NCBI RefSeq assembly: GCF_023015885.1
Contig: NZ_JALKBE010000008.1
Coordinates: forward strand, 81,683-145,682
Reading direction: 5' to 3'
Source of the DNA: Aliiroseovarius sp. S1123
Lineage (GTDB): Bacteria; Pseudomonadota; Alphaproteobacteria; Rhodobacterales; Rhodobacteraceae
Length of the DNA: 64,000 bases
The position numbers and the translations under genes were made by a program. This document shows positions 1,755 to 33,743 of this stretch, one piece after another; the first letter of the stretch is position 1, and each line of letters opens with the position of its first letter. Under the pieces are notes generated by a model that was not told the origin of the DNA, ran no database searches, and was given only the letters and a program-made list of their open reading frames with translations.

Positions 1755-2090
1755 GATCCGGACGCCGGATGCTTCAATAGGCCTTGCGCCCCATCATGGT
1801 TTCAACTCTTCAGCGCGCCCTGAATAAGGGCGCGCTTTGCGTTTAGACAGGCCCGTTCAGTCCACGACGGGAGCGTGTTTATACCTTCAGGGCCGATTCC
1901 CCGAGGTCGCGCTCAAACTCCTGAAAAACAGATGGTTTCTGCCTGAAAAGCAGGTTTCGATTGCTTTTTGGCGCAGAATAGGTGTGAATCGTAGCCAACA
2001 CTGATGAACCGGCATAATTTTGGCCGGTTTCTGATTTTACATTTTGTATTACGCAATTGTTGATGGATATTAGGAGTGTTCGTTAACGCA
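1755..2090. other. Intergenic region between nrdJ and the polysaccharide locus
   Basis: 336 bases with no supported gene. The first part holds the nrdJ terminator hairpin. The rest turns AT-rich towards 2040-2090 and ends in an AGGAG at 2072-2076 before the sulfotransferase start. It presumably contains the promoter of the forward operon, but no clear -35/-10 pair could be picked out by eye. Confidence 0.5.
1812..1845 (+). terminator. Rho-independent terminator of nrdJ
   Basis: A perfect 9-bp stem (AGCGCGCCC at 1812-1820, GGGCGCGCT at 1828-1836) with a 7-base loop is followed by TTGCGTTT. It lies about 60 bases after the nrdJ stop. Confidence 0.85.
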
Positions 2091-3020
2091 ATGAATTTAT
2101 TCAGCGATGAGAAGCAGTTTCATTTGATGACCCAATCCGCGCCGACTTTCATCCATATCGGGATACACAAGACCGGCTCGTCGACCTTGCAGCATAAATT
2201 TCGCACGCATGCGTCGATCTATTATGTCGAACGTGCGGACGTTCGCAATGCATTCATTGGCCACTCTCTGGACTTCGACGATCACCCCTTTCAGTCCGAG
2301 GCCGAGCGGGCTGCGGATCAATCCAAGGCGCTGGTCATGTCGCATGAACGGCTGTCGGGCTATCCGGCGTCGGGCGGGTTTGACCGCGAACTGATCGCGG
2401 GCCGTCTGGCCAAGGCCTTCCCCGATGCGAAGATATTGGTCGTGTTTCGCGAGCAATCCCGCTGGATCAAAAGCTTCTATCAGCAATATGTGGCAGACGG
2501 CGGCAGCCTGAAGTTGCGTGAATTTTTGACCAATCCACAGCCACAGATCTATAAACTTCCCGCGTTCGAGCTGGACTATCTGAATTATCATCAGTTGGTG
2601 TCGCTGTATCAGGGGCATTTCGGTGCCGACAATGTTCTGGCGCTTCCGTTTGAGCTGATGGTGAAGGATTTCGATGCGTTCTCGGGGCGCCTGAATGAAT
2701 TCTTCGGGTTTAATCTTGAGCTGGTGAACGAGGTGACAAACCGTGCCCGTCCGTTGATGCCGCTATTGTTCATGCGGTTCGTGAACGGGACCATCGGAAA
2801 CACGCAATTGTCGCCCGGTGGATTTGTTCCACTTGGGTATCTGAAACTGGCCACCAAGCTGCTGGGTGCGATGCCGGGCGCGCGGGCTTTGGATAAACGG
2901 ATTTCGGCCCGGTTTGATCGTCTGATTGATGAGAAGATCGAAGGCCACTACGATGAAAGTAACAAGGAGCTGGAAACCCTGATAGGTATGGATTTGAAGC
3001 CATATGGGTATTTCCGCTGA
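2091..3020 (+). CDS. Sulfotransferase family protein
   Basis: Likely transfers sulfate from PAPS to a polysaccharide or other acceptor. The N-terminal part has the 5'-phosphosulfate-binding loop (HIGIHKTGSSTLQ, Lys followed by Thr-Gly-Ser-Ser-Thr), and the middle has FREQSRWIKSFYQQY, like the 3'-phosphate-binding helix of the family. About 309 residues, no signal peptide, so cytoplasmic. The ATG at 2091 sits 14 bases after AGGAG; a GTG at 2076 and an ATG at 2127 are alternatives. It is the first gene of the forward block that opens the polysaccharide locus. The acceptor is unknown; a second sulfotransferase lies at 19563-20423. Confidence 0.82.
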   Translation: MNLFSDEKQFHLMTQSAPTFIHIGIHKTGSSTLQHKFRTHASIYYVERADVRNAFIGHSLDFDDHPFQSEAERAADQSKALVMSHERLSGYPASGGFDRELIAGRLAKAFPDAKILVVFREQSRWIKSFYQQYVADGGSLKLREFLTNPQPQIYKLPAFELDYLNYHQLVSLYQGHFGADNVLALPFELMVKDFDAFSGRLNEFFGFNLELVNEVTNRARPLMPLLFMRFVNGTIGNTQLSPGGFVPLGYLKLATKLLGAMPGARALDKRISARFDRLIDEKIEGHYDESNKELETLIGMDLKPYGYFR

Positions 3021-3168: not shown

Positions 3169-4095
3169 ATGAGTCACGATTTACAAGAAATTGATACCGA
3201 TGTGCTGGGTGTGGATTTGCCGCGCCAAGATCGGTTTTACCGGCAGCTGTATCTGATCCGGCGATTTGAACAGAAATTGTTAGAGCTGTTCACGAACAAC
3301 ATGCTGGCAGGAACGACCCATACGTCGCAAGGGCAGGAGGCCAATGCGGTGGCGATCATGGAGGCGCTGAAGCTGGATCGCGACATGGTCTGGTCCAACC
3401 ACCGCTGCCATGGGCATTTCCTGTCCTATTGCGGCCAAAGCTATCGCCTTTTCGCCGAGATTCTGGGCCGCCGCACCGGGGCCTGTGGCGGGCGCGGAGG
3501 TTCGCAGCATTTGCATTGGCGCAACTTCTATTCCTCGGGCATTCAGGGTGGGTTCGCGGCGGCTGCCGTTGGTGCTGCGCTGGCTGAGAAGGATAAAGGC
3601 GCGATCAGCTGTATTTTCATGGGCGACGGTACAATGGGCGAGGGCTCGGTCTATGAGGCATTGAACTTCGCGTCGCTTCTGTCCGCACCCGTCCTGTTCG
3701 TGGTCGAGGATAATGGCATTGCCCAAACCACCCCGAAAGAACTGGGCGTTGCGGGATCGATCACAGATCGCGCGCGGGCCTTCGGGATCGACTGTCACCA
3801 TCTGGCCAGCACCGATGCGGATGAAATCTTTGCGACGGTCAGCCCCATCGTGGACCAGATCCGCACCACCGGACGCCCGGCGTGGCTGCATCTGGAAACG
3901 GTGCGCCTTGGACCGCATTCCAAAGGCGACGACACGCGCGACGAGGCTTTCGTGGCCGAGCTGCAAAAACGTGATCCCTTGACCGTGTATCGCGACCGCG
4001 TAGGCGACCCCGGCGCGCTAGAAACATGGTGCGACGATCACATCGCGCAGGTTCTGGATCTGGCTTTGAAGGATGATGTTGCATGCGCGTCGTAG
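3169..4095 (+). CDS. 2-oxoacid dehydrogenase E1 component, alpha subunit (ThDP-dependent)
   Basis: Catalyses thiamine-diphosphate-dependent decarboxylation of a 2-oxoacid (pyruvate-like) and, with the beta subunit, reductive acylation of a lipoyl arm. The ThDP motif begins at G152 (GDGTMGEG) and ends near N182 (VVEDNG). Other conserved E1-alpha elements are HRCHGHFL, TGACGGRGGSQH and GPHSKGDDTR, which resembles the loop that contacts E2. About 308 residues, on the short side, like acetoin/pyruvate dehydrogenase alpha chains. The ATG at 3169 has GGAG upstream and is preferred over a TTG at 3130. It overlaps the E1-beta gene by 13 bases. The substrate cannot be read from sequence; the setting among sugar genes argues against a purely central-metabolic role. 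Confidence 0.9.
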   Translation: MSHDLQEIDTDVLGVDLPRQDRFYRQLYLIRRFEQKLLELFTNNMLAGTTHTSQGQEANAVAIMEALKLDRDMVWSNHRCHGHFLSYCGQSYRLFAEILGRRTGACGGRGGSQHLHWRNFYSSGIQGGFAAAAVGAALAEKDKGAISCIFMGDGTMGEGSVYEALNFASLLSAPVLFVVEDNGIAQTTPKELGVAGSITDRARAFGIDCHHLASTDADEIFATVSPIVDQIRTTGRPAWLHLETVRLGPHSKGDDTRDEAFVAELQKRDPLTVYRDRVGDPGALETWCDDHIAQVLDLALKDDVACAS

Positions 4096-5012
4096 AAGAA
4101 CTTCGGGACAGCCTGTTTGGCATCATGCAGCGCGATCCGTCGACCATCGTGTTGGGCGAGGATTTGCTGGATCCCTATGGCGGGGCGTTCAAGGTCACGC
4201 AGGGTCTGTCAGATGCCTATCCGAATAACGTCATCACCACCCCGATCTCGGAAGCCGGTTTGGTCGGTGTCGGTCTGGGCATGGCCTTGCGCGGGCGCAC
4301 CGTGCTGGCCGAAATCATGTTCGGGGACTTCCTGACCCTGACGACAGACCAGTTGGTGAACCATGCCGCTAAGGTGAAGTGGATGTTCAACGACGCGGTG
4401 GACGCAAGCCTTGTTGTGCGCACGCCTATGGGCGGTGGGCGCGGCTATGGTCCGACCCATTCGCAAAGCATCGAGAAACATTTCTGCGGCGTGCCCGGTC
4501 TGACCGTCATGGCGGTGAACCAGTTTCAAAGCCCCGGAGATCTTTTGAAAGAGGCCGCCGAACTGGGCAGCCCGGTTCTGTTTATCGAAAACAAGATTAT
4601 GTACTCGAAACTGGTCGAGCCGGACCGGCTTGTCAGCTATGACCGCCCAGACGCCGTGATCCTGACCTATGGCGGCGTGACCGAGTTCTGCGTACAGGCG
4701 GCCGAGCGTCTTTTGGACGACGAAGAGCTGACCGTCGAAGTTGTTCCGGTTCAGCACTTGTCACCGTTGCCCGCGGATTTGATCCGTACCGCTGCCGCCA
4801 AATCTGACCGCGTGTTTACGGTCGAGGAAGGCACGGTAAGCTGGGGGTTTGGCGCGGCTGTTGCCGAGGAAATCCTGTCGGCCGGGATCACACCGCACCA
4901 CTTTCAATCGATAGCTGCTGACCCCACCGCCATCCCAAGCGCGCGCAATTGGGAGCTGGAAATCCTGCCCAGCGTCGACAAGATCGAACGCGCTGTTGTG
5001 GCCTCGTTTTAA
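4083..5012 (+). CDS. 2-oxoacid dehydrogenase E1 component, beta subunit
   Basis: Transketolase-like partner of the preceding alpha chain; the two form the E1 heterotetramer. Seen: the GEDLLDPYGG...TQGL start typical of E1-beta, TTPISEAG (catalytic Glu region), EIMFGDF, DQLVNHAAK, and PTHSQSIEKHF, matching the conserved G-P-x-H-S-Q-S-x-E motif. The C-terminal transketolase domain contains VEEGTVSWGFGAAVAE. 309 residues, a normal length. It overlaps the alpha gene by 13 bases and lies 9 bases before the lipoyl-acyltransferase gene, so the three are almost certainly translated from one mRNA. No E2 acyltransferase or E3 gene follows, which is unusual for such an operon. Confidence 0.92.
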   Translation: MRVVEELRDSLFGIMQRDPSTIVLGEDLLDPYGGAFKVTQGLSDAYPNNVITTPISEAGLVGVGLGMALRGRTVLAEIMFGDFLTLTTDQLVNHAAKVKWMFNDAVDASLVVRTPMGGGRGYGPTHSQSIEKHFCGVPGLTVMAVNQFQSPGDLLKEAAELGSPVLFIENKIMYSKLVEPDRLVSYDRPDAVILTYGGVTEFCVQAAERLLDDEELTVEVVPVQHLSPLPADLIRTAAAKSDRVFTVEEGTVSWGFGAAVAEEILSAGITPHHFQSIAADPTAIPSARNWELEILPSVDKIERAVVASF

Positions 5013-5021
5013 GGAAAGATC

Positions 5022-6110
5022 ATGGCACACATCGACATCATAACCCCCCGGGTGAATGCAAACGAAGACGAGGTTCTGGTGGCCGAACTGCATGTTGCGG
5101 TGGGCGATCAGGTTGACGTGGGCGATCTTCTGATCTCGGCGGAAACGACCAAAGCCTCGGTTGATATCGAGGCGACGCATGCGGGGACGGTGTCAAAGAT
5201 CAACGGCAAGAAAGGGCGAATGATCGCCAGTGGCAGCGTGATCGTGGTGATCGACATCGGCGGCGATAGCGCCGCTGCGGGCGACGATGCGGGCGGGGCC
5301 GACGGTGGCAGCGCCGAGGTGAAAGTGACCACTAAGGCTCGGTTGCGCGCGGAAGAGCTGGGGATTGATCTGGACGCGGTTCTACCAAAAGCAGGACGCA
5401 TCGGCGTGGCCGAGGTCGAGGCCGCTGCAGGCAAAGGCGCGGATGGCGGACCACAAGTGACGGCTATGCAGGCCGTTCTGGTCGGCGGCGGCGGGCACGG
5501 CGCCACGATTGGCGAGATCGCGGTTGCCTGCGGCTGGGATCTGATTGGCGCGGTGGACGGGAAGCTTCCCAAAGGCACGCAGGTCATCTCGGGGGTCGAG
5601 GTGATCGCAACGGATGAGGCGCTGCAGTCGCTTTATGACAGCGGTGTGCGGGTGGCGTTTGTCGGGATCGGCGGGGCGACCTCGTCCGAGACGCGACAGG
5701 CCGTGTTTGAAAAATTGCAAGCAATTGGTTTCACTTTGCCACCATTGGTGCATCCGACCGCCCATTTCGGCGCGGATGTGAAACTGGGAGCGGCCAGTTA
5801 TGTGCTGCCTAATGCGATGGTTGGGCCGCGCTGCCGGATCGGGGCGAATGTGATCGTGAACTCGTCTAGCACCGTTGCGCATGATTGCGTCGTGGGCGAC
5901 CATGCGCATTTGACACCCGCTGCCATTCTGGCGGGCAACGTCCGGATTGGGGCAAGCAGCGTAGTTGGTATGGGCGCGTCTGTGCTGTTCGGCGTTGAGG
6001 TGGGGCAGGGCTGCTTGATCCACAACAACGTCTCGGTCCTGATGGATGTGCCGGACTTCACTGAGCTGTCGTTGGAACACGCGCCGAAACGCCGGGATCT
6101 GGACGCCTAG
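5022..6110 (+). CDS. Lipoyl domain - peripheral-subunit-binding domain - PglD/NeuD-type sugar acyltransferase fusion
   Basis: Three modules are visible. Residues 1-80 form a lipoyl domain with the lipoylatable lysine at K44 (ETTKAS; biotin domains would show EAMKM). After a Gly/Ala/Asp-rich linker, residues about 101-136 match the peripheral-subunit-binding domain of E2 proteins (TTKARLRAEELGIDL, then GRIGVAEVEA). Residues about 147-362 are a NeuD/PglD sugar O/N-acyltransferase: the N-terminal VGGGGHG loop binds the nucleotide sugar, and a left-handed beta-helix of hexapeptide repeats follows, with the catalytic-type histidine H287 in VAHDCVVGDHAHL. The 2-oxoacid_dh E2 catalytic domain is absent. 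With E1 alpha and beta directly upstream, the inference is acylation of an aminosugar from acyl-dihydrolipoyl instead of acyl-CoA. An alternative is a normal CoA-using acyltransferase merely tethered to the dehydrogenase. The start has AAGGAAAG upstream. It converges with the next gene, sharing CTAG across both stop codons. Confidence 0.88.
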   Translation: MAHIDIITPRVNANEDEVLVAELHVAVGDQVDVGDLLISAETTKASVDIEATHAGTVSKINGKKGRMIASGSVIVVIDIGGDSAAAGDDAGGADGGSAEVKVTTKARLRAEELGIDLDAVLPKAGRIGVAEVEAAAGKGADGGPQVTAMQAVLVGGGGHGATIGEIAVACGWDLIGAVDGKLPKGTQVISGVEVIATDEALQSLYDSGVRVAFVGIGGATSSETRQAVFEKLQAIGFTLPPLVHPTAHFGADVKLGAASYVLPNAMVGPRCRIGANVIVNSSSTVAHDCVVGDHAHLTPAAILAGNVRIGASSVVGMGASVLFGVEVGQGCLIHNNVSVLMDVPDFTELSLEHAPKRRDLDA

Positions 6111-9153: not shown

Positions 9154-10253
9154 ACACTTAGATCCTTCTGAAGGGCCTTGTCGCGACTGCGTCGGTTGCG
9201 AAAAAGCGTGACGGGCAGCTTTTCAAACAGCAGATAGGACACATGCGAAGTGGCAATGGCGACGATGAAGGTGACCACGCCGAACAGCAGGACACTGGCC
9301 CAAACGTTGTCCGAGAACAGGCCGAGCTTGTGAAACACTAGCCGCATGGGCATGTAAATATAGGGGTGCACCAGATACAGGCTGTAGCTGATCGTGCCCA
9401 GATACTGCGCCCAGCGGGCGGACAGAAGCCGCGCGGTGACGCTGTCTTTTTCGACCGCGAAAAGAAAATAGAGGAAGGTCAGGGCCATGCAGATCAGGGT
9501 GATCGGTTCGCGCAATTCGCCTGCACGGAAATCGAAATGCGCGCGAGACGCGGCATAGCCCAGCGACAGGGCGGTGATGACCTCGAGCAGCGCACGCGCC
9601 GGAAGCTTCTCGACGACGCGTCGGCCGTGGAGCACGAAGACAAGGATGCCCGCGACGAAATAGATGGATTTCGGGAACAGCACCAAGAACGCGACCGAGG
9701 CCAGCGCCATGATCAACTGAAGTCCGCGGAGCCTTTGGGTGATCGCAAAGGCGCCCAGCCCGGCCAGAAAATAGAACATCATCTCGTAGGTCAGGCTCCA
9801 CGCGTTCGGGGTCAGCTGTTCTGTCCCGGCCAGCAGGTTGGTGAAACTCAGCGCATAAAGGATGGTTGGCAGATCATTCAGCTTGGGCTGCAGGTTCGTG
9901 ACCGCGTTGCCTGCGATGAAGATCAACGAGAAGACCAGAAACAGCGGATAGATCCGCAGCATACGGCGGGTCGCGAAATCGCGCGGTTCATAGCGGAAGG
10001 CGCTGGGCAGGATGACAAAGCCCGATATGGCGAAGAACAGGTAGACAAAGAAGGTGCCGAAGTTCCACAGCGGCTCGGACATGGCCAGATAGGCGGCGTT
10101 GTCCGCATAGACATGTTCCGCCGTGCCGCCGATGATATGGGCAAACAGCACCATTGCCGACGCCAGGCCCCTCAGCCCATGAATGCCGGTATTGTGGCCG
10201 CCCTCGTAGGGCAGCCAATCCGGCAACTTATGAGGGGCGCGCAGGTTGGTCAT
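9150..10253 (-). CDS. Acyltransferase family 3 (OafA/YrhL-like) membrane protein
   Basis: Integral membrane O-acyltransferase that usually acetylates sugars of surface polysaccharide using cytoplasmic acetyl-CoA. The N-terminal HGLRGLASAMVLFAHI matches the R-G-(x)-A...H motif of the family, and about ten hydrophobic segments run through the protein, with SYSLYLVHP near the end. 367 residues, normal for a version without the SGNH domain. 4-base overlaps with both neighbours place it in the dideoxyhexose operon, so the dideoxy sugar or its glycoside is a plausible target. Confidence 0.87.
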   Translation of the reverse strand: MTNLRAPHKLPDWLPYEGGHNTGIHGLRGLASAMVLFAHIIGGTAEHVYADNAAYLAMSEPLWNFGTFFVYLFFAISGFVILPSAFRYEPRDFATRRMLRIYPLFLVFSLIFIAGNAVTNLQPKLNDLPTILYALSFTNLLAGTEQLTPNAWSLTYEMMFYFLAGLGAFAITQRLRGLQLIMALASVAFLVLFPKSIYFVAGILVFVLHGRRVVEKLPARALLEVITALSLGYAASRAHFDFRAGELREPITLICMALTFLYFLFAVEKDSVTARLLSARWAQYLGTISYSLYLVHPYIYMPMRLVFHKLGLFSDNVWASVLLFGVVTFIVAIATSHVSYLLFEKLPVTLFRNRRSRDKALQKDLSV

Positions 10254-11455
10254 TGGGCGGCAATCCCCTGATGCTGACGCGCGAAACCGGTGAAGACCTC
10301 ATGCATATAGTCCATGTGGGCGGGTGTCAGGCCGTGGTGCAGGGCCAGCAGAACCCCGCCTTTCATTACCTCATCCGCCACCGGATAGCCCGCCGGGTCG
10401 GTCTTGCAGGTGACATTCTGCATGGCGGGCTGGCGCAGGATGTTGCCGGTAAAGACCGGGCGGGTTTGAATGTCGGCGGTTTCCAGATGGATTTGCAGAT
10501 CGCGCCGCGTGAAGGGCGCGCCCTCGCGCAGGGTCAGCGGGAAAGACAGCCAACCGGTGCGGCTGTTCGGCAGCTGCTCGGGCAAGATGAACCAGTCTTC
10601 ATAGGCTTTGAAAAAGGCCATATGGGCGTCGAAATTCTTTTCGCGTTCGCTGATGTTGTGGTCCAGCTTATCGAGTTGAACCAGACCAAAGGCTGCGCTG
10701 ACTTCCGAGGGTTCAAGGTTATAGCCCAGATCCTCGAACAGGAATTTGGCGTCATAGTCGATGCCGTCGACCTTCACGTTAAAGCGGTTCTCGATGGTCT
10801 CGGATTCGACAAATAGGGACGAGCTGCGCCCCCACGAGCGTAAAAGCAGCGCCCTGCGGCCCAGTTCTTCGTCATTCACGCACAGCATTCCGCCGTTGCC
10901 CGCGCCGTTGATGACGTGCGAGCCATAGAAGCTGGTGGTCGACACGTCCGAGAATTTGCCGGTGCTGTCCGATCCGATCGTGGCGCCCAGCGTGTCGGCG
11001 CTGTCTTCGATGACTTTCAGGCTGTGGGCGTCGGCGATCTCGCGAATGCGTTGCCAGTCGGGCAGATTGCCAATTAGGGACGGGATCATCACGGCCGAGG
11101 TGTTGGGTGTGATCATCCGCTCAATCGCGTCCACGTCGATGTTATAGGTGCCGGGGGCGACATCTACGAAAGCGGGGACCAGCCCTTGGCGCACCAAGGG
11201 CGCGACCGTCGTGGCAAAGGTCAGGGCCGGGGTGATCACCTCGCTGCCTTTCGGCAGGTCCAAGATCTCGACCGCCAGATAATTCGCCGAAGAGCCCGAA
11301 TTCACCATGATCCCGTGGGATTTGGCAAAAAGCGCGGCGACGCGCTCTTGCATCTTGCGGACGCGCGGCCCCATCTGAGTCGACGTTTTCAGTACTTCGA
11401 CGACAGCGTCGATTTCGTCCTGACCATGAACGGTTTGACCGTAATTTACGCGCAT
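10250..11455 (-). CDS. rfbH: RfbH/ColD-like PLP-dependent sugar 3-dehydrase (DegT family) lacking Fe-S cysteines
   Basis: By position it should convert CDP-4-keto-6-deoxyglucose to the 3,6-dideoxy intermediate. The DegT/AHBA fold is clear (NSGSSANYLAVE, EVITPALTFATTV). The PLP lysine is replaced by histidine, H180, in SFYGSHVING, the hallmark of 3-dehydrases as opposed to aminotransferases. As recalled, classical RfbH/E1 proteins carry four [2Fe-2S] cysteines, in EDCCDALG and WGRDCYCAPGCDNTC. Here these read EDSADTLG and WGRSSSLFVESETIE, so all are gone. The gene for an RfbI/AscD-type reductase is also absent nearby. This fits a ColD-like mechanism using PMP without an iron-sulfur cluster. 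The start at 11455 has GGAGA upstream; an in-frame extension to 11902 lies over the rfbG gene and is rejected. 401 residues. Confidence 0.85.
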   Translation of the reverse strand: MRVNYGQTVHGQDEIDAVVEVLKTSTQMGPRVRKMQERVAALFAKSHGIMVNSGSSANYLAVEILDLPKGSEVITPALTFATTVAPLVRQGLVPAFVDVAPGTYNIDVDAIERMITPNTSAVMIPSLIGNLPDWQRIREIADAHSLKVIEDSADTLGATIGSDSTGKFSDVSTTSFYGSHVINGAGNGGMLCVNDEELGRRALLLRSWGRSSSLFVESETIENRFNVKVDGIDYDAKFLFEDLGYNLEPSEVSAAFGLVQLDKLDHNISEREKNFDAHMAFFKAYEDWFILPEQLPNSRTGWLSFPLTLREGAPFTRRDLQIHLETADIQTRPVFTGNILRQPAMQNVTCKTDPAGYPVADEVMKGGVLLALHHGLTPAHMDYMHEVFTGFARQHQGIAAQ

Positions 11456-11475
11456 AGTGGTCTCCTTCCCGGTCG

Positions 11476-12600
11476 CTATTGGGCGGCCAGTGATGTTGAA
11501 TTCTGTGGTGCCCCCGACATCAGCGCGCCGTATTGCGCGATCTGCGTCAGGGTGAAATCTTTCATGTTTTCTTGGGCGTGATGGGCGCGATGCCAGTCGA
11601 CGGTCATCCGAACGGCTGCGGGCAGATCCAGCTGCGGGCGCCAGCCCAATTGCGTTTGTGCCTTGGTGCTGTCCAGCCGCAGGACCCCGGCTTCGTGCAT
11701 GTTCGGGTCGGCCTGACCGAATTCGAACCGCGGCCCGTCGCGGCCCCAGCTGTCTTGCATCAAGCCTGCTAGGTCGCGGACATTGACGGTGCCCGAGACG
11801 TCGGGGCCGAAGTTCCAAGGCCCCGCGAAGGGCGCGCCATCGGACAAGAGCCGCGCGGCCAAAGCCAGATAGCCAGACAGAGGTTCCAGCACGTGCTGCC
11901 ACGGACGGATGCTGGAGGGGTTGCGGATCTGCACGGGCTCCCCTGCCACCGTGGCCCGCACGATGTCGGGGATCAGGCGATCCTCGCCCCAGTCGCCGCC
12001 GCCAAACACATTGCCCGCCCGCACCGTCGCCAATTGCGGTCCATCTGGCGCGTTGAAAAACGAACGCCCATAGGCTTGCGCGATCAGTTCTGTCGCCCCT
12101 TTCGAGGCGCTATAAGGATCCGAGCCGCCCATCGGGTCATTCTCGCGATAGCCCCAGCCCCACTCGTTGTTCTCGTAACACTTGTCGCTAGTTACGACGA
12201 TTGCAGCTTTCAGCGACGGCATCGCGCGGGCCAGATCCAAGACATGTGCGGTGCCCGAGACGTTGGTCGCGATGGTTGCCGCCGGTTCCACATAGGACCG
12301 CCGCACAAAGGGTTGCGCGGCCATGTGGATCACCAGATCGGCGTCAATGTCGCGTGCTTGTGCCAGCAGGGCGTCACGATCGCGAATGTCGATCAAACGG
12401 CTGTCCATGTCTGCTGTCAGCCCGGTCGCATCGCACAGGTTCGGCCCGGGCTCGGGCGCAAGCGCAATGCCGGACACACGGGCGCCAAGCTGCATCAGCC
12501 AATGGCTGATCCAACCGCCCTTGAACCCGGTGTGACCGGTGACAAGAACGTGGCGACCTTTGAATGCGCCGCCAAAATCAGAGGAAACAGCGCCGGACAT
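11476..12600 (-). CDS. rfbG: CDP-glucose 4,6-dehydratase
   Basis: Converts CDP-glucose to CDP-4-keto-6-deoxyglucose with bound NAD. The N-terminus has HVLVTGHTGFKGGW, the typical RfbG version of the Rossmann glycine motif (TGHTGFKG). VTSDKCYEN and the downstream YSASKGATE active-site YxxxK are intact, and RAGNVFGGGDW is a strong RfbG signature. About 374 residues, normal length. The ATG at 12600 is preferred because GAGG lies just before it within the end of rfbF; a TTG at 12612 is the alternative. It lies directly between rfbF and rfbH, so the order is that of a CDP-dideoxyhexose pathway. Confidence 0.93.
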   Translation of the reverse strand: MSGAVSSDFGGAFKGRHVLVTGHTGFKGGWISHWLMQLGARVSGIALAPEPGPNLCDATGLTADMDSRLIDIRDRDALLAQARDIDADLVIHMAAQPFVRRSYVEPAATIATNVSGTAHVLDLARAMPSLKAAIVVTSDKCYENNEWGWGYRENDPMGGSDPYSASKGATELIAQAYGRSFFNAPDGPQLATVRAGNVFGGGDWGEDRLIPDIVRATVAGEPVQIRNPSSIRPWQHVLEPLSGYLALAARLLSDGAPFAGPWNFGPDVSGTVNVRDLAGLMQDSWGRDGPRFEFGQADPNMHEAGVLRLDSTKAQTQLGWRPQLDLPAAVRMTVDWHRAHHAQENMKDFTLTQIAQYGALMSGAPQNSTSLAAQ

Positions 12601-12608
12601 CTTGGCCC

Positions 12609-13415
12609 TCAAATCGCAAGGGCTGTGATGTCTGACGGCAGTTCTTCATGGAACCGCAGCCAGGGCGGAGTTTCTTCTTCGCACAGGTCGTTCAGCGTGT
12701 TGCGATCCCGGATCGTGTCCATCGGGTGCCAGAAGCCGTCATGTTTGTACGCCATCAGCTCGCAATCCTGCGCCATCTGGGTCAGGGGCGATTGTTCAAG
12801 CGGTTCCATGTCATCGACGAAATAATCCATGACCTCAGGCTCGAACACGAAGAAGCCCCCATTGATCCAGGTATCGCGACGGCGGACCTTTTCGGTGAAG
12901 GCTTCCACCCGGTCACCAGCCAGTTCGATATTGCCGAACCGGGCCGGAGGCTGCACCGCGGTGACAGTCGCCAGTTTGCCGTGGGACTTATGGAACTCGA
13001 TCAGTGCGTTGATGTCGATGTTTCCCAACCCGTCCGAGTAGGTGACCATGAAGGGGCCGGGCCTCAGCCATTCTTTCAAGCGGCGAATGCGGCCACTGGT
13101 CATGGTCTTCGGGCCGGTGTCCACGACGGACACGTTCCACCCACCGGGAGAGGCAGGCACAAGGTCCATCTTGCCGCTGTCCAAAGACACGGTGATGTTG
13201 TTGGCGATCAGGTGATAGTTCGCAAAATACTGTTTCAGCGACAGAGATTTATACCCCGCTGCGACAATGAAGTCATTATGCCCAAATTGGCTGTAGATAT
13301 CCATGACGCGGGTGATAATTGGACGGCCACCGACCTCGACCATAGGTTTTGGGATGGTGACGGTTTCCTCGGCCAGACGCGAGCCCAAGCCACCGGCTAG
13401 CAAGATTGTCTGCAT
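12609..13415 (-). CDS. rfbF: Glucose-1-phosphate cytidylyltransferase
   Basis: Makes CDP-glucose from glucose 1-phosphate and CTP, the entry step for CDP-linked deoxysugars. The nucleotidyltransferase start LLAGGLGSRLAEET followed by IPKPMVEVGGRPI is textbook RfbF, as are MVTYSDGLGNID and NGGFFVFEPEV. 268 residues against about 257 for the usual enzyme. A GGGGGG run precedes the ATG. It is separated from the upstream membrane-protein gene by 115 bases, unlike the tight overlaps elsewhere, so an internal promoter is possible here. Confidence 0.94.
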   Translation of the reverse strand: MQTILLAGGLGSRLAEETVTIPKPMVEVGGRPIITRVMDIYSQFGHNDFIVAAGYKSLSLKQYFANYHLIANNITVSLDSGKMDLVPASPGGWNVSVVDTGPKTMTSGRIRRLKEWLRPGPFMVTYSDGLGNIDINALIEFHKSHGKLATVTAVQPPARFGNIELAGDRVEAFTEKVRRRDTWINGGFFVFEPEVMDYFVDDMEPLEQSPLTQMAQDCELMAYKHDGFWHPMDTIRDRNTLNDLCEEETPPWLRFHEELPSDITALAI

Positions 13416-19562: not shown

Positions 19563-20423
19563 TTAACGGGCGCTTTCGTTGGTCTTGGAAGTGCCGCGTG
19601 AGTGGGTCCAATGCGGCAGAAAGCCGGGTGCCAGCTTGGACAATTCTGACTTGTCGGCCAGATAGAACTCCTCCATCGCCTGTTTCAGATCGTCTGGAAG
19701 CGCTGGATAGGTGAAGGGCTTGGCAACAAGGTTCCGCAATGTGCTGACCGGCGGCCGGGTGCGGATCGGGTCGAGAAGCGGACGAAGCGGTGCGAGGACA
19801 CGCCGCAAAGGTCCCGGAACTGCCGCGGCATGTTTGTCCTTTACCTTCTCGCGCACTGGCGGGGTCAGCTGGCCGGTATAGCCGATGTGATCCGCGACCC
19901 ATTGCAATTGCCGATCCGGATGCGTGGCGACATCTTCAAATGCCAAAAGCAGGATTTGCTTGTGCGGGAACAGGGCATAGAAGCGCTTCAGATGGTGACC
20001 ATAGAGCCCATCATTCAGAAACCGTTCGGTCGCGGCTTTTTGCGGATCAAGGTGGCGGCGGATATCCTCGTTCACCTCTCCGCGGCGCAGCAACATGCAG
20101 TAATCCGAGTACGCACGCTGAACGGGGTCGCGCATCTGAACGATCATTTTCACGTCCGGATAAGTGGCATGAATGCGCTCGGCGGCTTCGGGCTGGGTCA
20201 GATAAGAGTTTGATTTCTCGCCTACGATGTCATCGGGCTGAGCGCCGTCGAACTGAGCGTTGAACCAATCAAAGCCCTTGTCATAGACACGCGAGAAGAA
20301 GTGCAGTTCGGGCGCGGGCATGAAGATACCGGGCGAGGCCGAAAGGGAGTGTTGCTCCCATGTCGTCGCGCATTTGGCAGCGCCGATGATCAGAAAGTCG
20401 ATGGGACGGGGCGTGGTGGTCAT
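19563..20423 (-). CDS. Sulfotransferase domain protein
   Basis: PAPS-dependent sulfotransferase of the heparan-sulfate N-sulfotransferase/NodH-like type, expected to sulfate a sugar. The N-terminal IIGAAKCATTWEQHSL is the 5'-phosphosulfate loop (K-C-A-T-T instead of the commoner K-x-G-T-T), PELHFF is typical of the next strand, and RDPVQRAYSDY is the 3'-phosphate-binding motif with its conserved Arg and Ser. 286 residues. It is the last gene of the reverse export operon, 3 bases after a glycosyltransferase gene, so the exported polysaccharide is its likely substrate. Confidence 0.9.
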   Translation of the reverse strand: MTTTPRPIDFLIIGAAKCATTWEQHSLSASPGIFMPAPELHFFSRVYDKGFDWFNAQFDGAQPDDIVGEKSNSYLTQPEAAERIHATYPDVKMIVQMRDPVQRAYSDYCMLLRRGEVNEDIRRHLDPQKAATERFLNDGLYGHHLKRFYALFPHKQILLLAFEDVATHPDRQLQWVADHIGYTGQLTPPVREKVKDKHAAAVPGPLRRVLAPLRPLLDPIRTRPPVSTLRNLVAKPFTYPALPDDLKQAMEEFYLADKSELSKLAPGFLPHWTHSRGTSKTNESAR

Positions 20424-30332: not shown

Positions 30333-30941
30333 ATGAATCGATTGCTCGAGATTTTGATCTGCCTGTGCATGTTGGTGGTTGCCGTGCCCCTCTGCGCGGT
30401 GACCTATCTGATCGTCGTCAAGGCCCTCGGCCATCCGGTGATGTTTCGCCAGACACGGGCGGGGAAGGGCGGTGTGCCTTTCGACGTGATCAAGTTTCGA
30501 ACCCTCACGGATGACCGCGACGAACATGGCATTTGGTTGCCGGATGAAGAGCGTCTGACCCCCGCCGGGAAATTCCTGCGCCGCACGCGGTTTGACGAGC
30601 TTCCGCAGCTATTCATCATTTTGGCGGGCCGCATGGCACTGGTCGGCCCCCGTCCGCTGATGGGCGAGACAATCGACGGGTTCGGTGCGGATGGGATCAA
30701 GCGCGGGTCGGTCCGACCGGGCCTGACCGGATGGTCTCAGGTCAGCGGAAATACTGCGCTGAACGATGACGAGAAGCTGACGCTGGATCTGTGGTATGTG
30801 GCCCATCGCACGACCGCGTTAGATTTTCGTATTCTGGTCGAGACGATCGGTGTTGCCCTGTTCGGAGAGCATCGGCGCGAAGATCGGATCGCGGCGGCAG
30901 AGCATTGGGGAAGCACATTAAACGCGCAGGCCCAAGCATGA
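30333..30941 (+). CDS. Undecaprenyl-phosphate phosphosugar transferase (PglC/WcaJ-type initiating enzyme)
   Basis: Starts repeat-unit assembly by moving a sugar 1-phosphate to undecaprenyl phosphate. A single N-terminal hydrophobic hairpin (about residues 5-27) is followed by the monotopic catalytic domain: FRQTRAGKGG, KFRTLTDDRDEHG (with the catalytic D-E region in RFDELPQLF), LVGPRPLMGE and RPGLTGWSQVSGN. The short length (202 residues) and D-R-D-E-H-G/L-P-D-E-E-R pattern are closest to PglC, the bacillosamine phosphate transferase, as recalled. Its stop overlaps the formyltransferase start (ATGA). Confidence 0.92.
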   Translation: MNRLLEILICLCMLVVAVPLCAVTYLIVVKALGHPVMFRQTRAGKGGVPFDVIKFRTLTDDRDEHGIWLPDEERLTPAGKFLRRTRFDELPQLFIILAGRMALVGPRPLMGETIDGFGADGIKRGSVRPGLTGWSQVSGNTALNDDEKLTLDLWYVAHRTTALDFRILVETIGVALFGEHRREDRIAAAEHWGSTLNAQAQA

Positions 30942-31867
30942 CGTCCGGCATGAAGATTGTTTTGGTCGGCGCGGTGGAAAGCACCCAGATTGCCCTGAAT
31001 GCGCTTTGTACCTCGGGCCACGCGCCCGCAATGGTCGTGACCTTGCCGCCCGAGCTTGCGCATCGCCATTCGGATTTTGTCGACGTGGCGCCGCTGGCGC
31101 AGGAATATGGCTGCGCCCTGCATCTGACTGGCAAAAGTGACAGCGCAGAAACGATCTCCGCCATCCGTGCGCTCGACCCGGATTTGGTGCTGGTGATCGG
31201 CTGGTCTCAGCTGTGCGGAGCCGAGTTTCGCGCGGTGCCAAAGCTGGGATGCATCGGATTTCACCCCTCGGACCTACCCAAATTGCGGGGGCGGGCGGTT
31301 TTGCCGTGGACGATTCTCTTGAGGGAACGGGTTATCGGCACCTCGCTTTTTTGGCTTGGCGAGGGCGCAGATACCGGCCCCATCGCCGCGAAATCACGGT
31401 TCGAGGTCGACCCCGAGACGATCACCGCGCGGGAACTTTATGACCGCCATATGGAGGCGCTCGCTGACATGTTGCCCCCGCTGATGGAGCGCATCGCGTC
31501 AGGCGACGTTCCCCGCGTTCCGCAGGACGAGGCTGGGGCCAGCCTATGTGCCTTGCGTCGGCCCGAGGATGGATTGATCGACTGGACCACCCCCGCCGCC
31601 GACATTCACCGCCTGATCCGCGCAGCGGGCCCCCCTTATCCCGGCGCGTTCACCCATGCGGCGGATGGGACCAAGCTGGTGTTGACGGCTGTCCGCCACA
31701 CACCGCGCGCGGGCTACTATATCGGTCTGCCCGGGCAGGTGCAGGACATCGATGGGCGAACCTTTACGGTCGCATGCGGTGACGGAAACTGCATTGATAT
31801 TCTTGATTGGCAGGGGGCGGAGGCGCCTCCGAAATTACATAGTAAACTTGGAAAGATGACGACATGA
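30938..31867 (+). CDS. Formyltransferase family protein, probable sugar N-formyltransferase
   Basis: Likely moves a formyl group from N10-formyltetrahydrofolate to an aminosugar. The Rossmann-like formyltransferase domain has FHPSDLPKLRGRAVLPWTI with H109 and a conserved aspartate in GEGADTGPI. The canonical N-x-H is G-F-H here, a form also seen in other sugar-type relatives as recalled. A C-terminal beta domain (about residues 205-300) resembles the C-terminal part of methionyl-tRNA formyltransferase. 309 residues. ATGA overlaps at both ends couple it to the PglC-like transferase and to a deacetylase, which argues for a sugar substrate; a true fmt is unlikely here. Confidence 0.83.
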   Translation: MTSGMKIVLVGAVESTQIALNALCTSGHAPAMVVTLPPELAHRHSDFVDVAPLAQEYGCALHLTGKSDSAETISAIRALDPDLVLVIGWSQLCGAEFRAVPKLGCIGFHPSDLPKLRGRAVLPWTILLRERVIGTSLFWLGEGADTGPIAAKSRFEVDPETITARELYDRHMEALADMLPPLMERIASGDVPRVPQDEAGASLCALRRPEDGLIDWTTPAADIHRLIRAAGPPYPGAFTHAADGTKLVLTAVRHTPRAGYYIGLPGQVQDIDGRTFTVACGDGNCIDILDWQGAEAPPKLHSKLGKMTT

Positions 31868-32568
31868 GCACGCTTGCCTCGACCGCATTTGGCGGCGATC
31901 CCAAAGCACCGGTCCTAGTGATTGCCCCCCATCCTGATGACGAGGTGCTGGGCGTCGGCGGCACCATCGCGCGGCTGGCCGACGAGGGACGCGAGGTGCA
32001 TGTGGCGGTGGTCACCAAAGGGGGGCTGCCGCTCTTTACCGAAGACATGACCGCCCGCGTCCGGGCCGAGGCCCGCGCCGCCCATGATCATCTGGGTGTG
32101 GCCAAGACCCATTGGCTGGATTTCCCCGCTGCCGAACTGGCCGAGCATCCGCATGGCGGGTTGAACGCTGGCCTTGGCAAGCTGGTGCGAGATCTGGCGC
32201 CTGGGCTGATTTTCGTCACTCATCCCGGCGACATTCACATGGACCACCAGCTGTCGTTCCTGTCGACGCTGGTCGCCAGCCGACCGCATCAGCAGGATTA
32301 TCCGACCACGATTTTGGCCTATGAGACGCTGTCGGAAACCAACTGGAATGCGCCCTATCTGACGCCCGCTTTCGTGCCGAACGTGTTCATCGACGTCACG
32401 GAAACGCTCGAGCGCAAGCTGGAGGCGTTCCAGATGTTTGCGAGCCAGGTGAAAGAGCCGCCGCATGAGCGATCCGTCAACGCCTTGCGCGCTTTGGCGA
32501 CCTTGCGCGGGGCCACGGTGCATCGCCACGCGGCCGAGGGTTTTGTCCTTGTGCGCAGCGTGATCTGA
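31864..32568 (+). CDS. PIG-L family N-deacetylase
   Basis: Zinc-dependent de-N-acetylase of the LmbE/PIG-L group, acting on an N-acetyl sugar. The metal-binding APHPDDEVLGVGG motif lies near residues 19-31, and the second metal-binding part is GDIHMDHQ. 234 residues, standard length, cytoplasmic. Translational coupling (ATGA) to the formyltransferase suggests a two-step swap: remove the acetyl group, then put formyl on the free amine. That order is an inference. Confidence 0.9.
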   Translation: MSTLASTAFGGDPKAPVLVIAPHPDDEVLGVGGTIARLADEGREVHVAVVTKGGLPLFTEDMTARVRAEARAAHDHLGVAKTHWLDFPAAELAEHPHGGLNAGLGKLVRDLAPGLIFVTHPGDIHMDHQLSFLSTLVASRPHQQDYPTTILAYETLSETNWNAPYLTPAFVPNVFIDVTETLERKLEAFQMFASQVKEPPHERSVNALRALATLRGATVHRHAAEGFVLVRSVI

Positions 32569-32579
32569 GGGAGACACCC

Positions 32580-33743
32580 ATGTCCAACTGGCCCGTATTC
32601 GATGAAGAACAGATCGCTGCCGTGACCGAGGTTTTGCGCTCGGGCAAGGTGAATGCGTGGACTGGCCCAGATGTGTGGGCCTTCGAGGAAGAGTTTGCCG
32701 ATTGGTTCGGCGTGCCGCACGCGATTGCGATGGCCAACGGCACCGTCACGCTGGACGCGGCCCTGCATGTATTGGGCCTGAGTGAGGGCGACGAGGTCAT
32801 CGTCACGCCCCGCAGCTTCATCGCGTCTGCCAGCTCGGTGTCCCTGAAAGGCGGCGTGCCGGTCTTCGCGGATGTCGGCCCAGACAGCCAGAACATTACG
32901 GCGGACACCATTGCACCCCTGATCACGCCCCGCACCAAGGGGATCATCCCGGTGCATCTGGGCGGCTGGCCCTGCGATATGCCCGCCATCATGGATCTGG
33001 CGCGGGCGCATGACCTGTGGGTGATCGAAGATTGCGCGCAGGCGCATGGTGCAATGATTGGTGATCAGCATGTGGGTAGCTTCGGCACCTTCGGGTCATT
33101 CTCGTTCTGTCAGGACAAGATCATGTCCACGGGTGGCGAGGGCGGCATACTGACCACAAACGACCGTGACCTCTGGTCCAAAGCGTGGAGCTTCAAGGAC
33201 CACGGCAAGGATTATGATGTGGTGTTCAACACCGTGCACCCTCCGGGCTTTCGTTGGCTGCATGGGGCCGGGCCGGGGACGAACCTGCGTATGACAGGGC
33301 CGTCTGCGGCCATTGGACGGGTACAGTTGAAACGTCTAGCGGACTGGCGCGCGCATCGTGCGGCGAACGCAGGCATTCTGGCGCAAGCTCTGTCAGAATT
33401 GGAAGCGATCCGCGTGCCGAAATTGCCGGATGACATGACCCACGCCTATTACCGTTTCTATGCCTTCGTACGCCCCGAAGCGTTGAAAAACGACTGGAGC
33501 CGCGACCGCATCATCGCCGAGGTCTCGGGCGCGGGGTTCCCGATATTCTCGGGCAGTTGTTCCGAGATCTATCGCGAAGGCACTTTCACGCGCTATGGTC
33601 TGGGACCAGACGCGCCGCTTCCGGTGGCGCGGGAATTGGGCGACACTAGCTTGTGTTTCTTGGTGGATCCGACGTGGACCACAGAGCGCACGCAGGACTT
33701 GGGTGACTGTTTGCAAACGGTGGTCGTGAAGGCGACACGGTAA
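32580..33743 (+). CDS. DegT/DnrJ/EryC1/StrS aminotransferase (PglE/perosamine-synthase-like)
   Basis: PLP-dependent aminotransferase placing an amino group on a 4-keto (or 3-keto) nucleotide sugar. The AHBA fold is clear: AMANGTVTLDAALHVLG, EVIVTPRSFIASA, IPVHLGGWPCDM, VIEDCAQAHGA, and the PLP lysine in SFCQDKIMSTGGEGG. 387 residues. GAGGGAGA lies before the start. Unlike the RfbH-like protein at 10250, it keeps the lysine and is therefore a true aminotransferase. It could follow the PglF-like dehydratase and feed the lipoyl-acyltransferase or the formyltransferase. Confidence 0.9.
   Translation: MSNWPVFDEEQIAAVTEVLRSGKVNAWTGPDVWAFEEEFADWFGVPHAIAMANGTVTLDAALHVLGLSEGDEVIVTPRSFIASASSVSLKGGVPVFADVGPDSQNITADTIAPLITPRTKGIIPVHLGGWPCDMPAIMDLARAHDLWVIEDCAQAHGAMIGDQHVGSFGTFGSFSFCQDKIMSTGGEGGILTTNDRDLWSKAWSFKDHGKDYDVVFNTVHPPGFRWLHGAGPGTNLRMTGPSAAIGRVQLKRLADWRAHRAANAGILAQALSELEAIRVPKLPDDMTHAYYRFYAFVRPEALKNDWSRDRIIAEVSGAGFPIFSGSCSEIYREGTFTRYGLGPDAPLPVARELGDTSLCFLVDPTWTTERTQDLGDCLQTVVVKATR

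What the first reader, a model, noticed from the sequence alone, without database searches (positions are those of the whole stretch)
5022..6110. Sugar acyltransferase fused to lipoyl and peripheral-subunit-binding domains
One 362-residue protein carries a lipoyl domain (K44 in ETTKAS), a peripheral-subunit-binding domain (about 101-136) and a complete PglD/NeuD-type left-handed beta-helix acyltransferase (VGGGGHG, H287). PglD/NeuD enzymes are known as CoA users without lipoyl domains. The E2 catalytic domain that normally follows these two modules is replaced by an unrelated acyltransferase. Seen directly: the three domains in one open frame. Inferred: acyl transfer from lipoyl thioester to an aminosugar.
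Basis: partly seen in the sequence, partly recalled or inferred. Interest (0 to 1): 0.93.

Follow-up and report, generated by a model that had tools for sequence, protein, structure and literature searches.

The report
Sugar acylator powered by lipoyl arm
A bacterium carries a three-gene set in which a sugar-acylating enzyme is fused to the swinging lipoyl arm known from pyruvate dehydrogenase and follows the genes for its likely acyl-making partner, so it would likely put a small acyl group straight onto an amino sugar without coenzyme A.

Summary
The three-part protein is real. E1beta lies by the fused gene in 28 of 29 distinct places (the other contig starts at the gene) and by 0 of 34 unfused NeuD genes. 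The E1s form their own clade apart from pyruvate-type E1 (100/100) with a fixed polar signature. That clade includes RenH of the renieramycin plasmid and a Streptomyces ACP-E1alpha-E1beta-E2 set laid out like SclQ1-4, whose homologues QncN/QncL/QncM are reported to make and attach a glycolyl unit (PMC6335953). There an E2 core follows the lipoyl domain; here a left-handed beta-helix sugar acyltransferase takes its place. Its catalytic-type His is kept, but the C-terminal GxPA motif, whose proline seems to be the one that answers to CoA in PglD-type enzymes, is gone (0 of 138 against 30 of 35). Most likely it is a substitute E2 that moves an acyl group (best guess glycolyl) from lipoyl to an amino sugar. 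Lipoylation, donor, acceptor and CoA independence are untested. New variant of a known kind; the paper searches listed no description.

The parts
3169..4095 (+). E1alpha (thiamine-diphosphate-binding subunit), dedicated clade; the listed ORF opens at TTG 3130, the ATG at 3169 gives 308 aa, the length of a listed relative (P0181)
   Evidence: Pfam E1_dh E 1.3e-41; E1alpha tree: cassette rows one side of a branch against PDH-type rows 100/99, 100/100 with other rows; signature T62 H91 Q126 Q199 K265 D268 in ORF-3130 numbering
4083..5012 (+). E1beta (transketolase pyrimidine + C-terminal domains); start overlaps the E1alpha stop by 13 bases
   Evidence: Pfam Transket_pyr 1.8e-25, Transketolase_C 9.3e-16; E57 and H126 kept in 26 of 26 cassette E1betas and in 23 of 23 PDH-type ones; sequence
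5011..5018 (+). AAGGAAAG, ribosome-binding-like purine stretch before the ATG at 5022
   Evidence: read from sequence; function inferred
5022..6110 (+). lipoyl - peripheral-subunit-binding-like - NeuD/PglD left-handed beta-helix acyltransferase fusion, 362 aa
5022..5261 (+). lipoyl domain, residues 1-80; K44 codon at 5151-5153; NANED motif residues 12-16
   Evidence: Pfam Biotin_lipoyl 6-77; K44 in 145 of 146 fused rows, N14 in 146 of 146; Foldseek matches to lipoyl domains 3crk, 2dnc, 1gjx, 1qjo
5322..5447 (+). peripheral-subunit-binding-like segment, residues about 101-142
5466..6095 (+). NeuD/PglD-type acyltransferase domain, residues 149-358; catalytic-type His287 codon at 5880-5882

Best explanation
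The protein at 5022-6110 is a lipoyl-PSBD-like-NeuD fusion encoded directly behind E1alpha and E1beta genes, and it is predicted to act as a substitute E2 that passes an acyl group from its lipoyl arm straight to an amino sugar. Steps: (1) E1alpha/E1beta with thiamine diphosphate would take a two-carbon unit from a polar donor (a ketose phosphate or hydroxypyruvate are the best guesses). (2) It would reductively acylate the lipoyl group on K44, giving most likely a glycolyl thioester. (3) The swinging lipoyl domain would deliver this thioester into the cleft between NeuD subunits, where H287 would help the sugar amine attack it. (4) A general E3, of which the genome has three candidates, would re-oxidise the arm, perhaps docked on the PSBD-like segment. 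Shown: the domains, the gene order and its conservation, the dedicated E1 clade, the loss of the GxPA motif, and genes for LipA, LipB and Lpd in the genome. Inferred: lipoylation, the donor, the glycolyl identity, the sugar and the absence of CoA.
For: (a) Gene coupling: E1beta by the fused gene in 28 of 29 distinct places and E1alpha in 27 of 29; both kinds of absence are contig ends (L081, L038) (31 loci, two pairs the same place). In the loci where distances were measured E1beta ends at most 755 bases away, on the same strand. 0 of 34 unfused NeuD loci have either (flanks about 1.5 kb or less). (b) The genome has four clear E1_dh genes (a fifth match has 34 bits) and three 2-oxoacid_dh cores; the cassette E1 is the only clear one without an E2 core on its contig. 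Three Lpd over cut-off, two LipA, one LipB. (c) K44 in 145 of 146 fused rows, in an ETTKA context also found in many E2s with a DHRxxDG motif. (d) Acceptor-domain swap: of 11 cassette-type E1alpha places in 398 genomes (at least 316 bits; the next match has 264; only the 5 best candidates per genome were scored), 5 are followed by lipoyl-NeuD, 1 by another lipoyl-hexapeptide protein, 4 by lipoyl-E2 core; 1 lies at a contig end. Two further lipoyl-hexapeptide proteins that my NeuD profile does not match (L091, L133) also follow such E1 genes. (e) The E1s of five loci of the NRPS/ACP kind lie in the same clade and share T62, H91, Q126, K265 and D268 in 5 of 5; none of 13 PDH-type rows has any of these (in a wider set of 21, three have D268). 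Qnc homologues of such sets are reported to make and attach a C2 glycolicacyl unit (PMC6335953, passages). (f) GxP(A/G) near the C-terminus: 0 of 138 main fused rows, 30 of 35 unfused, 9 of the 11 nearest unfused; a conserved proline in the last turn of such enzymes turns cis on CoA binding (PMC8040287). H287 is kept in 138 of 138.
Against: No biochemistry. The minor fused groups (8 rows) are less clear: 2 of 8 keep GxP(A/G), and positions 288 and 305 vary. Loss of GxPA could mean a changed C-terminus rather than a changed donor, and that this motif holds the CoA-linked proline is my inference from its place. The NeuD domain still fits CoA-bound PerB and PglD structures well. Single-sequence Pfam sees no PSBD here. 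No E3 gene is among the neighbours scanned. The glycolyl assignment rests on kinship of E1s and on polar replacements whose active-site role I recall rather than computed. The nearest DegT (10253) carries His where aminotransferases have Lys; a DegT not so examined lies 26 kb away (32580). Only 10 of 25 loci show a DegT homologue, so an amino sugar as acceptor is not shown.
Confidence: 0.62

Rival explanations
1. An ordinary acetyl-CoA-dependent NeuD N-acetyltransferase that carries the lipoyl-PSBD module only for docking or local supply: the E1-lipoyl unit makes acyl groups that are first handed to CoA by one of the cell's ordinary E2 cores, and the fused NeuD takes acyl-CoA.
For: The NeuD domain matches CoA-bound PerB and PglD closely and is only 2 bits under the NeuD cut-off; the genome has three E2 cores.
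Against: Loss of GxPA in 138 of 138 main-clade rows; no E2 core gene beside the cassette; tight E1 coupling. A detour through CoA would not need the lipoyl domain fused to the transferase.
Confidence: 0.17
2. As the best explanation, but the acyl group is acetyl, lactyl or another group from a 2-oxoacid, not glycolyl, and the E1 is a true 2-oxoacid dehydrogenase.
For: The best solved relatives of both E1 subunits are pyruvate- and branched-chain-type enzymes; the residues E57 and H126 of E1beta are kept.
Against: PDH-type residues F, Y, M, M, M are replaced by T, H, Q, Q, K in 23 of 23 cassette rows (of the wider set only L224 has M at 199), nearly the same set as in the five E1s of NRPS/ACP loci (4 of 5 with Q199).
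Confidence: 0.3
3. The beta-helix domain is not a sugar acyltransferase here but a lipoyl:CoA transacylase, so the cassette exports acyl-CoA.
For: It occupies the place of the E2 core.
Against: Sugar-gene surroundings in the window and in relatives; NeuD family sequence; loss of GxPA argues against a usual CoA site.
Confidence: 0.05
4. A decayed or vestigial fusion without function.
For: Patchy presence: 2 of 20 congeners have a full-length relative.
Against: K44, H287 and the E1 signature residues are conserved over distant loci; a 96%-identical copy in another species.
Confidence: 0.03

Closest known systems
QncN/QncL/QncM (C2 glycolicacyl unit for a non-ribosomal peptide) and SclQ1-4 (scleric acid), PMC6335953
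   Same: Dedicated E1alpha, E1beta and lipoyl-bearing acyltransferase. Loci of this kind (L232 RenH/RenI, L233 Streptomyces ACP-E1alpha-E1beta-E2, and L234-L236) share the E1 clade and signature with the window; Asn at lipoyl position 14 in 8 of 9 E2-core partners of this E1 clade.
   Different: There a 2-oxoacid_dh core follows the lipoyl domain and an ACP belongs to the set; here a NeuD beta-helix takes the core's place and the acceptor would be an amino sugar. The Qnc and Scl sequences themselves were not in hand; kinship is through L232-L236.
PglD / PerB / VioB / NeuD sugar N-acyltransferases
   Different: Fused to lipoyl + PSBD-like modules, coupled to E1, and lacking the C-terminal GxPA motif. 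PglD-type enzymes such as Pcryo_0637 use acetyl-CoA (PMC8040287, passages).
Dihydrolipoyl acyltransferase (E2) of pyruvate and branched-chain dehydrogenases
   Same: N-terminal lipoyl and PSBD-like modules in the same order; gene lies behind E1alpha and E1beta.
   Different: No 2-oxoacid_dh catalytic core; Asn at position 14 with Glu/Asp at 15, where 71 E2 lipoyl rows of other kinds have mostly D/T/S and M.
LpxA / LpxD
   Same: Left-handed beta-helix acyltransferases taking the acyl group from a protein-bound thioester (recalled: acyl-ACP); LpxD structures appear in the fold list.
   Different: Donor arm is phosphopantetheine on a separate protein; here it would be lipoyl-lysine on the same chain.

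Membership tests
NeuD/PglD family sugar acyltransferase (TIGR03570) | score over the NCBIfam cut-off (160.8 bits) | tested here: not met
   158.8 bits; narrowly under
NeuD/PglD family sugar acyltransferase (TIGR03570) | PglD_N plus left-handed beta-helix fold | tested here: met
   Pfam, AF2 model, PerB/PglB/VioB/PglD top structures
NeuD/PglD family sugar acyltransferase (TIGR03570) | catalytic His | tested here: met
   H287, 138 of 138 main fused rows
NeuD/PglD family sugar acyltransferase (TIGR03570) | C-terminal GxPA (common in unfused members; taken to hold the proline that responds to CoA) | tested here: not met
   0 of 138 main fused rows, 30 of 35 unfused rows
NeuD/PglD family sugar acyltransferase (TIGR03570) | acyl-CoA as donor | not testable with these tools
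   needs assay
E2 dihydrolipoyl acyltransferase | lipoyl domain with lipoylable Lys | tested here: met
   Pfam; K44 in 145 of 146 rows; the modification itself is not testable here
E2 dihydrolipoyl acyltransferase | peripheral-subunit-binding domain | tested here: inconclusive
   no Pfam hit in this protein, but 24 of 55 relatives at E<=1 and hhalign 95.2
E2 dihydrolipoyl acyltransferase | 2-oxoacid_dh (PF00198) catalytic core | tested here: not met
   no match
QncN/QncL-type C2-unit loading system | E1alpha/E1beta of the same clade and signature | tested here: met
   for E1alpha, against L232-L236 as stand-ins; Qnc sequences not in hand
QncN/QncL-type C2-unit loading system | E2-core acyltransferase domain after the lipoyl domain | tested here: not met
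   NeuD domain there instead
QncN/QncL-type C2-unit loading system | dedicated acyl carrier protein gene beside it | not tested
   ORFs under 80 aa were not listed; none of the window ORFs scanned matches an ACP

The most novel reading that the evidence does not exclude
A C2 hand-off machine known from antibiotic assembly lines has been re-plumbed into cell-surface glycan synthesis: an E1 of the QncN/RenH kind cuts a glycolyl unit from a sugar phosphate, loads it on a lipoyl arm, and a beta-helix transferase fused to that arm puts it on a nucleotide-linked amino sugar, with no CoA, no acyl carrier protein and no ATP. The transferase module behind the arm has been exchanged more than once in evolution (E2 core, NeuD or other hexapeptide transferases).
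Probability: 0.4. Interest if true: 0.92.

Novelty: new variant of a known kind. Interest (0 to 1): 0.82.

Why it matters
As far as I know, sugar N- and O-acyltransferases are described as users of acyl-CoA or acyl-ACP. A transferase that takes its acyl group from a lipoyl arm charged on the spot by its own E1 would be a third donor class. It would offer a source for unusual N-acyl groups such as glycolyl in bacterial polysaccharides, show that the acceptor module of 2-oxoacid-dehydrogenase-like complexes can be swapped, and give a modular route to install acyl groups from cheap keto compounds. Many genes named simply 'NeuD family sugar acetyltransferase' (names) would need a new reading.

Tried and rejected
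Singular fusion: rejected, 146 fused rows were in hand. Chance neighbour of E1: rejected by 28 of 29 against 0 of 34. One single fusion event: not supported; in the NeuD-domain tree (98 rows, 69 fused and 29 unfused) the fused label needs 4 changes, 3 forced by starred branches; a main clade of 63 fused rows (100/98, with one unfused, P0064, likely partial) and two small long-stemmed groups (bootstrap not settled, long branches). E1 being a plain pyruvate dehydrogenase: not supported by the trees. Biotin instead of lipoate: the residue after K44 is A, S or T in 145 of 146 rows, not the Met of the usual biotin motif (recalled), and ETTKA occurs in E2s; not proven. Flagellin 'lipoylation' paper PMC4875605 (passages) speaks of fatty acid chains and is unrelated. 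Plasmid search with the whole fused protein: 67 records, no place covering 80% of it; the 40 listed match the NeuD part only. Paper searches aimed at a description: none among the titles and abstract starts listed, which for most of these calls were only a part of the hits, aimed at naphthyridinomycin, aimed at RenH, listed no paper using those names as wanted. Of the papers, I saw passages of PMC8040287, PMC4875605, PMC6335953 and PMC2663715, and section 11 of PMC8040287. VIA-align rows cover mainly residues 147-362, so the N-terminal part was hardly tested there.

Rows dropped before counts: P0055 and P0064 (likely partial; P0055 has a PSBD-like hit; P0064 lies within the fused clade) left out of the 35 unfused rows. 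L006/L065 and L007/L066 are the same places and counted once in the 29 (one search lists 31). In some searches, L227 was labelled E2-core partner although its contig ends just behind E1alpha, and L224 was labelled beta-helix partner although its 740-aa lipoyl-hexapeptide protein matches my NeuD profile only weakly. L098 and L224 share sequence and are taken as the same place. In one search the K/H pattern for DegT rows was unreliable and is not used, except SFYGSHV in the window's own DegT, which can be read. The PSBD hits are with a profile made from the same family and are not used as evidence.

Full report

The gene set. Directly upstream on the same strand are E1alpha (ATG 3169 to 4095) and E1beta (4083-5012), overlapping by 13 bases, then an AAGGAAAG stretch and the fused gene at 5022; that they are one operon is inferred. 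In the genome there are four clear E1_dh genes and a fifth match at 34 bits; three of the four have a 2-oxoacid_dh core on the same contig within about 3 kb, the fourth is this one. Three Lpd genes over cut-off, two LipA and one LipB are present, so lipoylation and re-oxidation are possible. The genus is Aliiroseovarius if the named records of two congeners are right.

Conservation. A genome-contig scan with a 14-row alignment kept 80 of 81 relatives, of which 25 (L065-L089) match over most or all of the fusion, from Aliiroseovarius, Mesorhizobium, Rhizobium, Sphingomonas, Anaerolineales, Burkholderiales, Nitrosomonas, Chromatiales, Opitutia and others. The other 55 match over a part, mostly the lipoyl domain of E2s of Mycobacterium and kin; three of them (L091, L098, L133) turned out to be lipoyl proteins with hexapeptide repeats lying behind cassette-like E1 genes. 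E1beta is present by the fused gene in 28 of 29 distinct places and E1alpha in 27 of 29; the exceptions are contig ends. Of 34 unfused NeuD loci with flanks of about 1.5 kb or less none has E1. In two Anaerolineales loci (L078, L082) a gap of about 0.75 kb separates E1beta from the fused gene.

The E1 is not of the pyruvate kind. E1alpha trees put the cassette rows on one side of a branch from PDH-type rows (23 against 23 rows, 100/99; PDH-type rows one group at 100/100). Of 23 cassette rows, all have T62, N90, H91, Q126, Q199, K265 and D268, where the 21 PDH-type rows have F (19 of 21), S or G mostly, Y (21), M (18), M (18), M (18) and P (16; D in 3). The Tyr is, by the YR motif as I recall it, the Y102alpha of G. 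stearothermophilus E1 that PMC2663715 places near the lactyl-ThDP methyl group and notes to be His in E. coli E1p (passages). More polar replacements suggest a more polar donor; that is inference. E1beta keeps E57 and H126 in 26 of 26 rows.

Same E1, other acceptors. In 398 genomes of the phylum, 11 E1alpha places score at least 316 bits with the cassette profile and the next 264 (the 5 best candidates per genome were scored). Downstream: 5 lipoyl-NeuD (G000, G377, G346, G157, G479), 1 lipoyl-hexapeptide protein of 740 aa (G272, weak NeuD match), 4 lipoyl + 2-oxoacid_dh core (G205, G217, G134, G120), 1 at a contig end. In G120 the lipoyl-E2 is followed by a phosphopantetheinyl transferase protein. 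In the plasmid collection, the nine top rows for E1alpha (41-49% identity) come from Nonomuraea, four renieramycin plasmids (RenH), two records of one Streptantibioticus strain and two Streptomyces; the other 51 rows listed are at most 42% (144 records in all). [quoted passage not shown] In that paper deletion of sclQ1-4 left residual product, which its authors put down to glycolic acid from elsewhere. The five E1s taken (L232-L236; two of these records have no annotation there) fall in the clade and carry T62, H91, Q126, K265 and D268. The lipoyl domains agree: Asn14 in 146 of 146 fused rows and 8 of 9 E2-core partners of this E1 clade, whereas the 71 E2 lipoyl rows of other kinds have D 54, T 9, S 5 as the commonest letters. 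So the lipoyl-E1 unit looks like one inherited machine, and the module behind it differs.

What changed in the NeuD domain. Comparing 138 main-clade fused rows with 35 unfused ones, His287 is kept (138 of 138; 33 of 35), as is Gly305 (137 of 138; 33 of 35), equivalent by 18-residue spacing to the oxyanion-hole Gly160 of Pcryo_0637 (PMC8040287, passages; equivalence inferred). Met317 (138 of 138; A in 22 of 35 unfused) and Asn335 (137 of 138; A in 31 of 35) mark the fused clade. A GxP(A/G) motif near the C-terminus is present in 30 of 35 unfused rows, 2 of 8 minor fused rows and 0 of 138 main fused rows, and in 9 of the 11 unfused rows nearest in the tree. PMC8040287 (section 11) states that a conserved proline switches from trans to cis when CoA binds. 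That I equate this proline with the GxPA motif rests on its place in the last turn.

How it most likely works. E1 charges the lipoyl arm; the arm swings into the NeuD active site; the sugar amine takes the acyl group; an Lpd re-oxidises the arm. The sugar is unknown. Surrounding genes make glycans: GT4, GT2, epimerase, Acyl_transf_3, an RfbH-like DegT, an SDR and a nucleotidyltransferase at 6.1-13.4 kb, a Polysacc_synt_2 protein at 16.8-19.0 kb, and formyltransferase, PIG-L and DegT at 30.8-33.7 kb. A DegT homologue lies in 10 of the 25 L065-L089 loci and PIG-L in 4 (several contigs are short).

Limits. No tool can show lipoylation, the donor or the product. The two minor fused groups branch elsewhere in the NeuD tree on long stems and are less clearly stripped of the GxPA motif, so they may be separate fusions or fast-evolving members. 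In the E1 tree with the NRPS-type rows the beta-helix label needs 7 changes, 4 forced, which suggests repeated swapping, but several inner supports are weak and two labels are uncertain (L224, L227).

Noticed in passing
window 10253-11902 (-), with 11476-12612 (-) and 12609-13415 (-): RfbH-like DegT (308 bits to PRK15407, under its cut-off of 423) with His (SFYGSHV) where aminotransferases have the PLP lysine (recalled), next to an SDR and a nucleotidyltransferase: looks like a CDP-3,6-dideoxyhexose route (RfbF/G/H type; name recalled).
   Followed up: partly
window 30791-33740 (+): Formyltransferase, PIG-L deacetylase and DegT in a row: a second amino-sugar set; PIG-L and DegT homologues are also upstream of the cassette in four Mesorhizobium loci (L067, L068, L069, L074).
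   Followed up: partly
window 2076-3020 (+), 19566-20423 (-): Two sulfotransferase-family genes, one just upstream of the cassette, one within the polysaccharide region.
   Followed up: no
L098 5455-7695 (+) and L224 2998-5217 (-) (same place, Magnetococcales), L091 2825-4462 (+) (Thermoleophilia), L133 9770-11032 (+) (Acidobacteria): Lipoyl proteins of 421-747 aa with hexapeptide repeats but no clear NeuD domain, behind cassette-like E1 genes: further acceptor modules behind the same kind of E1.
   Followed up: partly
L226 5902-10071 (+) (G120): Joined E1alpha-E1beta, lipoyl-E2 core, then a phosphopantetheinyl transferase protein whose first part looks like an ACP by eye: a possible acyl-ACP loading set.
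   Followed up: partly
L077, L222, L223, L225, L226, L228, L229, L230: E1alpha and E1beta are joined in one frame of about 640-690 aa in several members of this E1 clade, as in RenH (L232).
   Followed up: no
G001-G020: Only 2 of 20 congeners have a full-length relative of the fusion (89% and 96% identity); the cassette is patchy within the genus, as expected for exchanged surface-glycan genes.
   Followed up: partly
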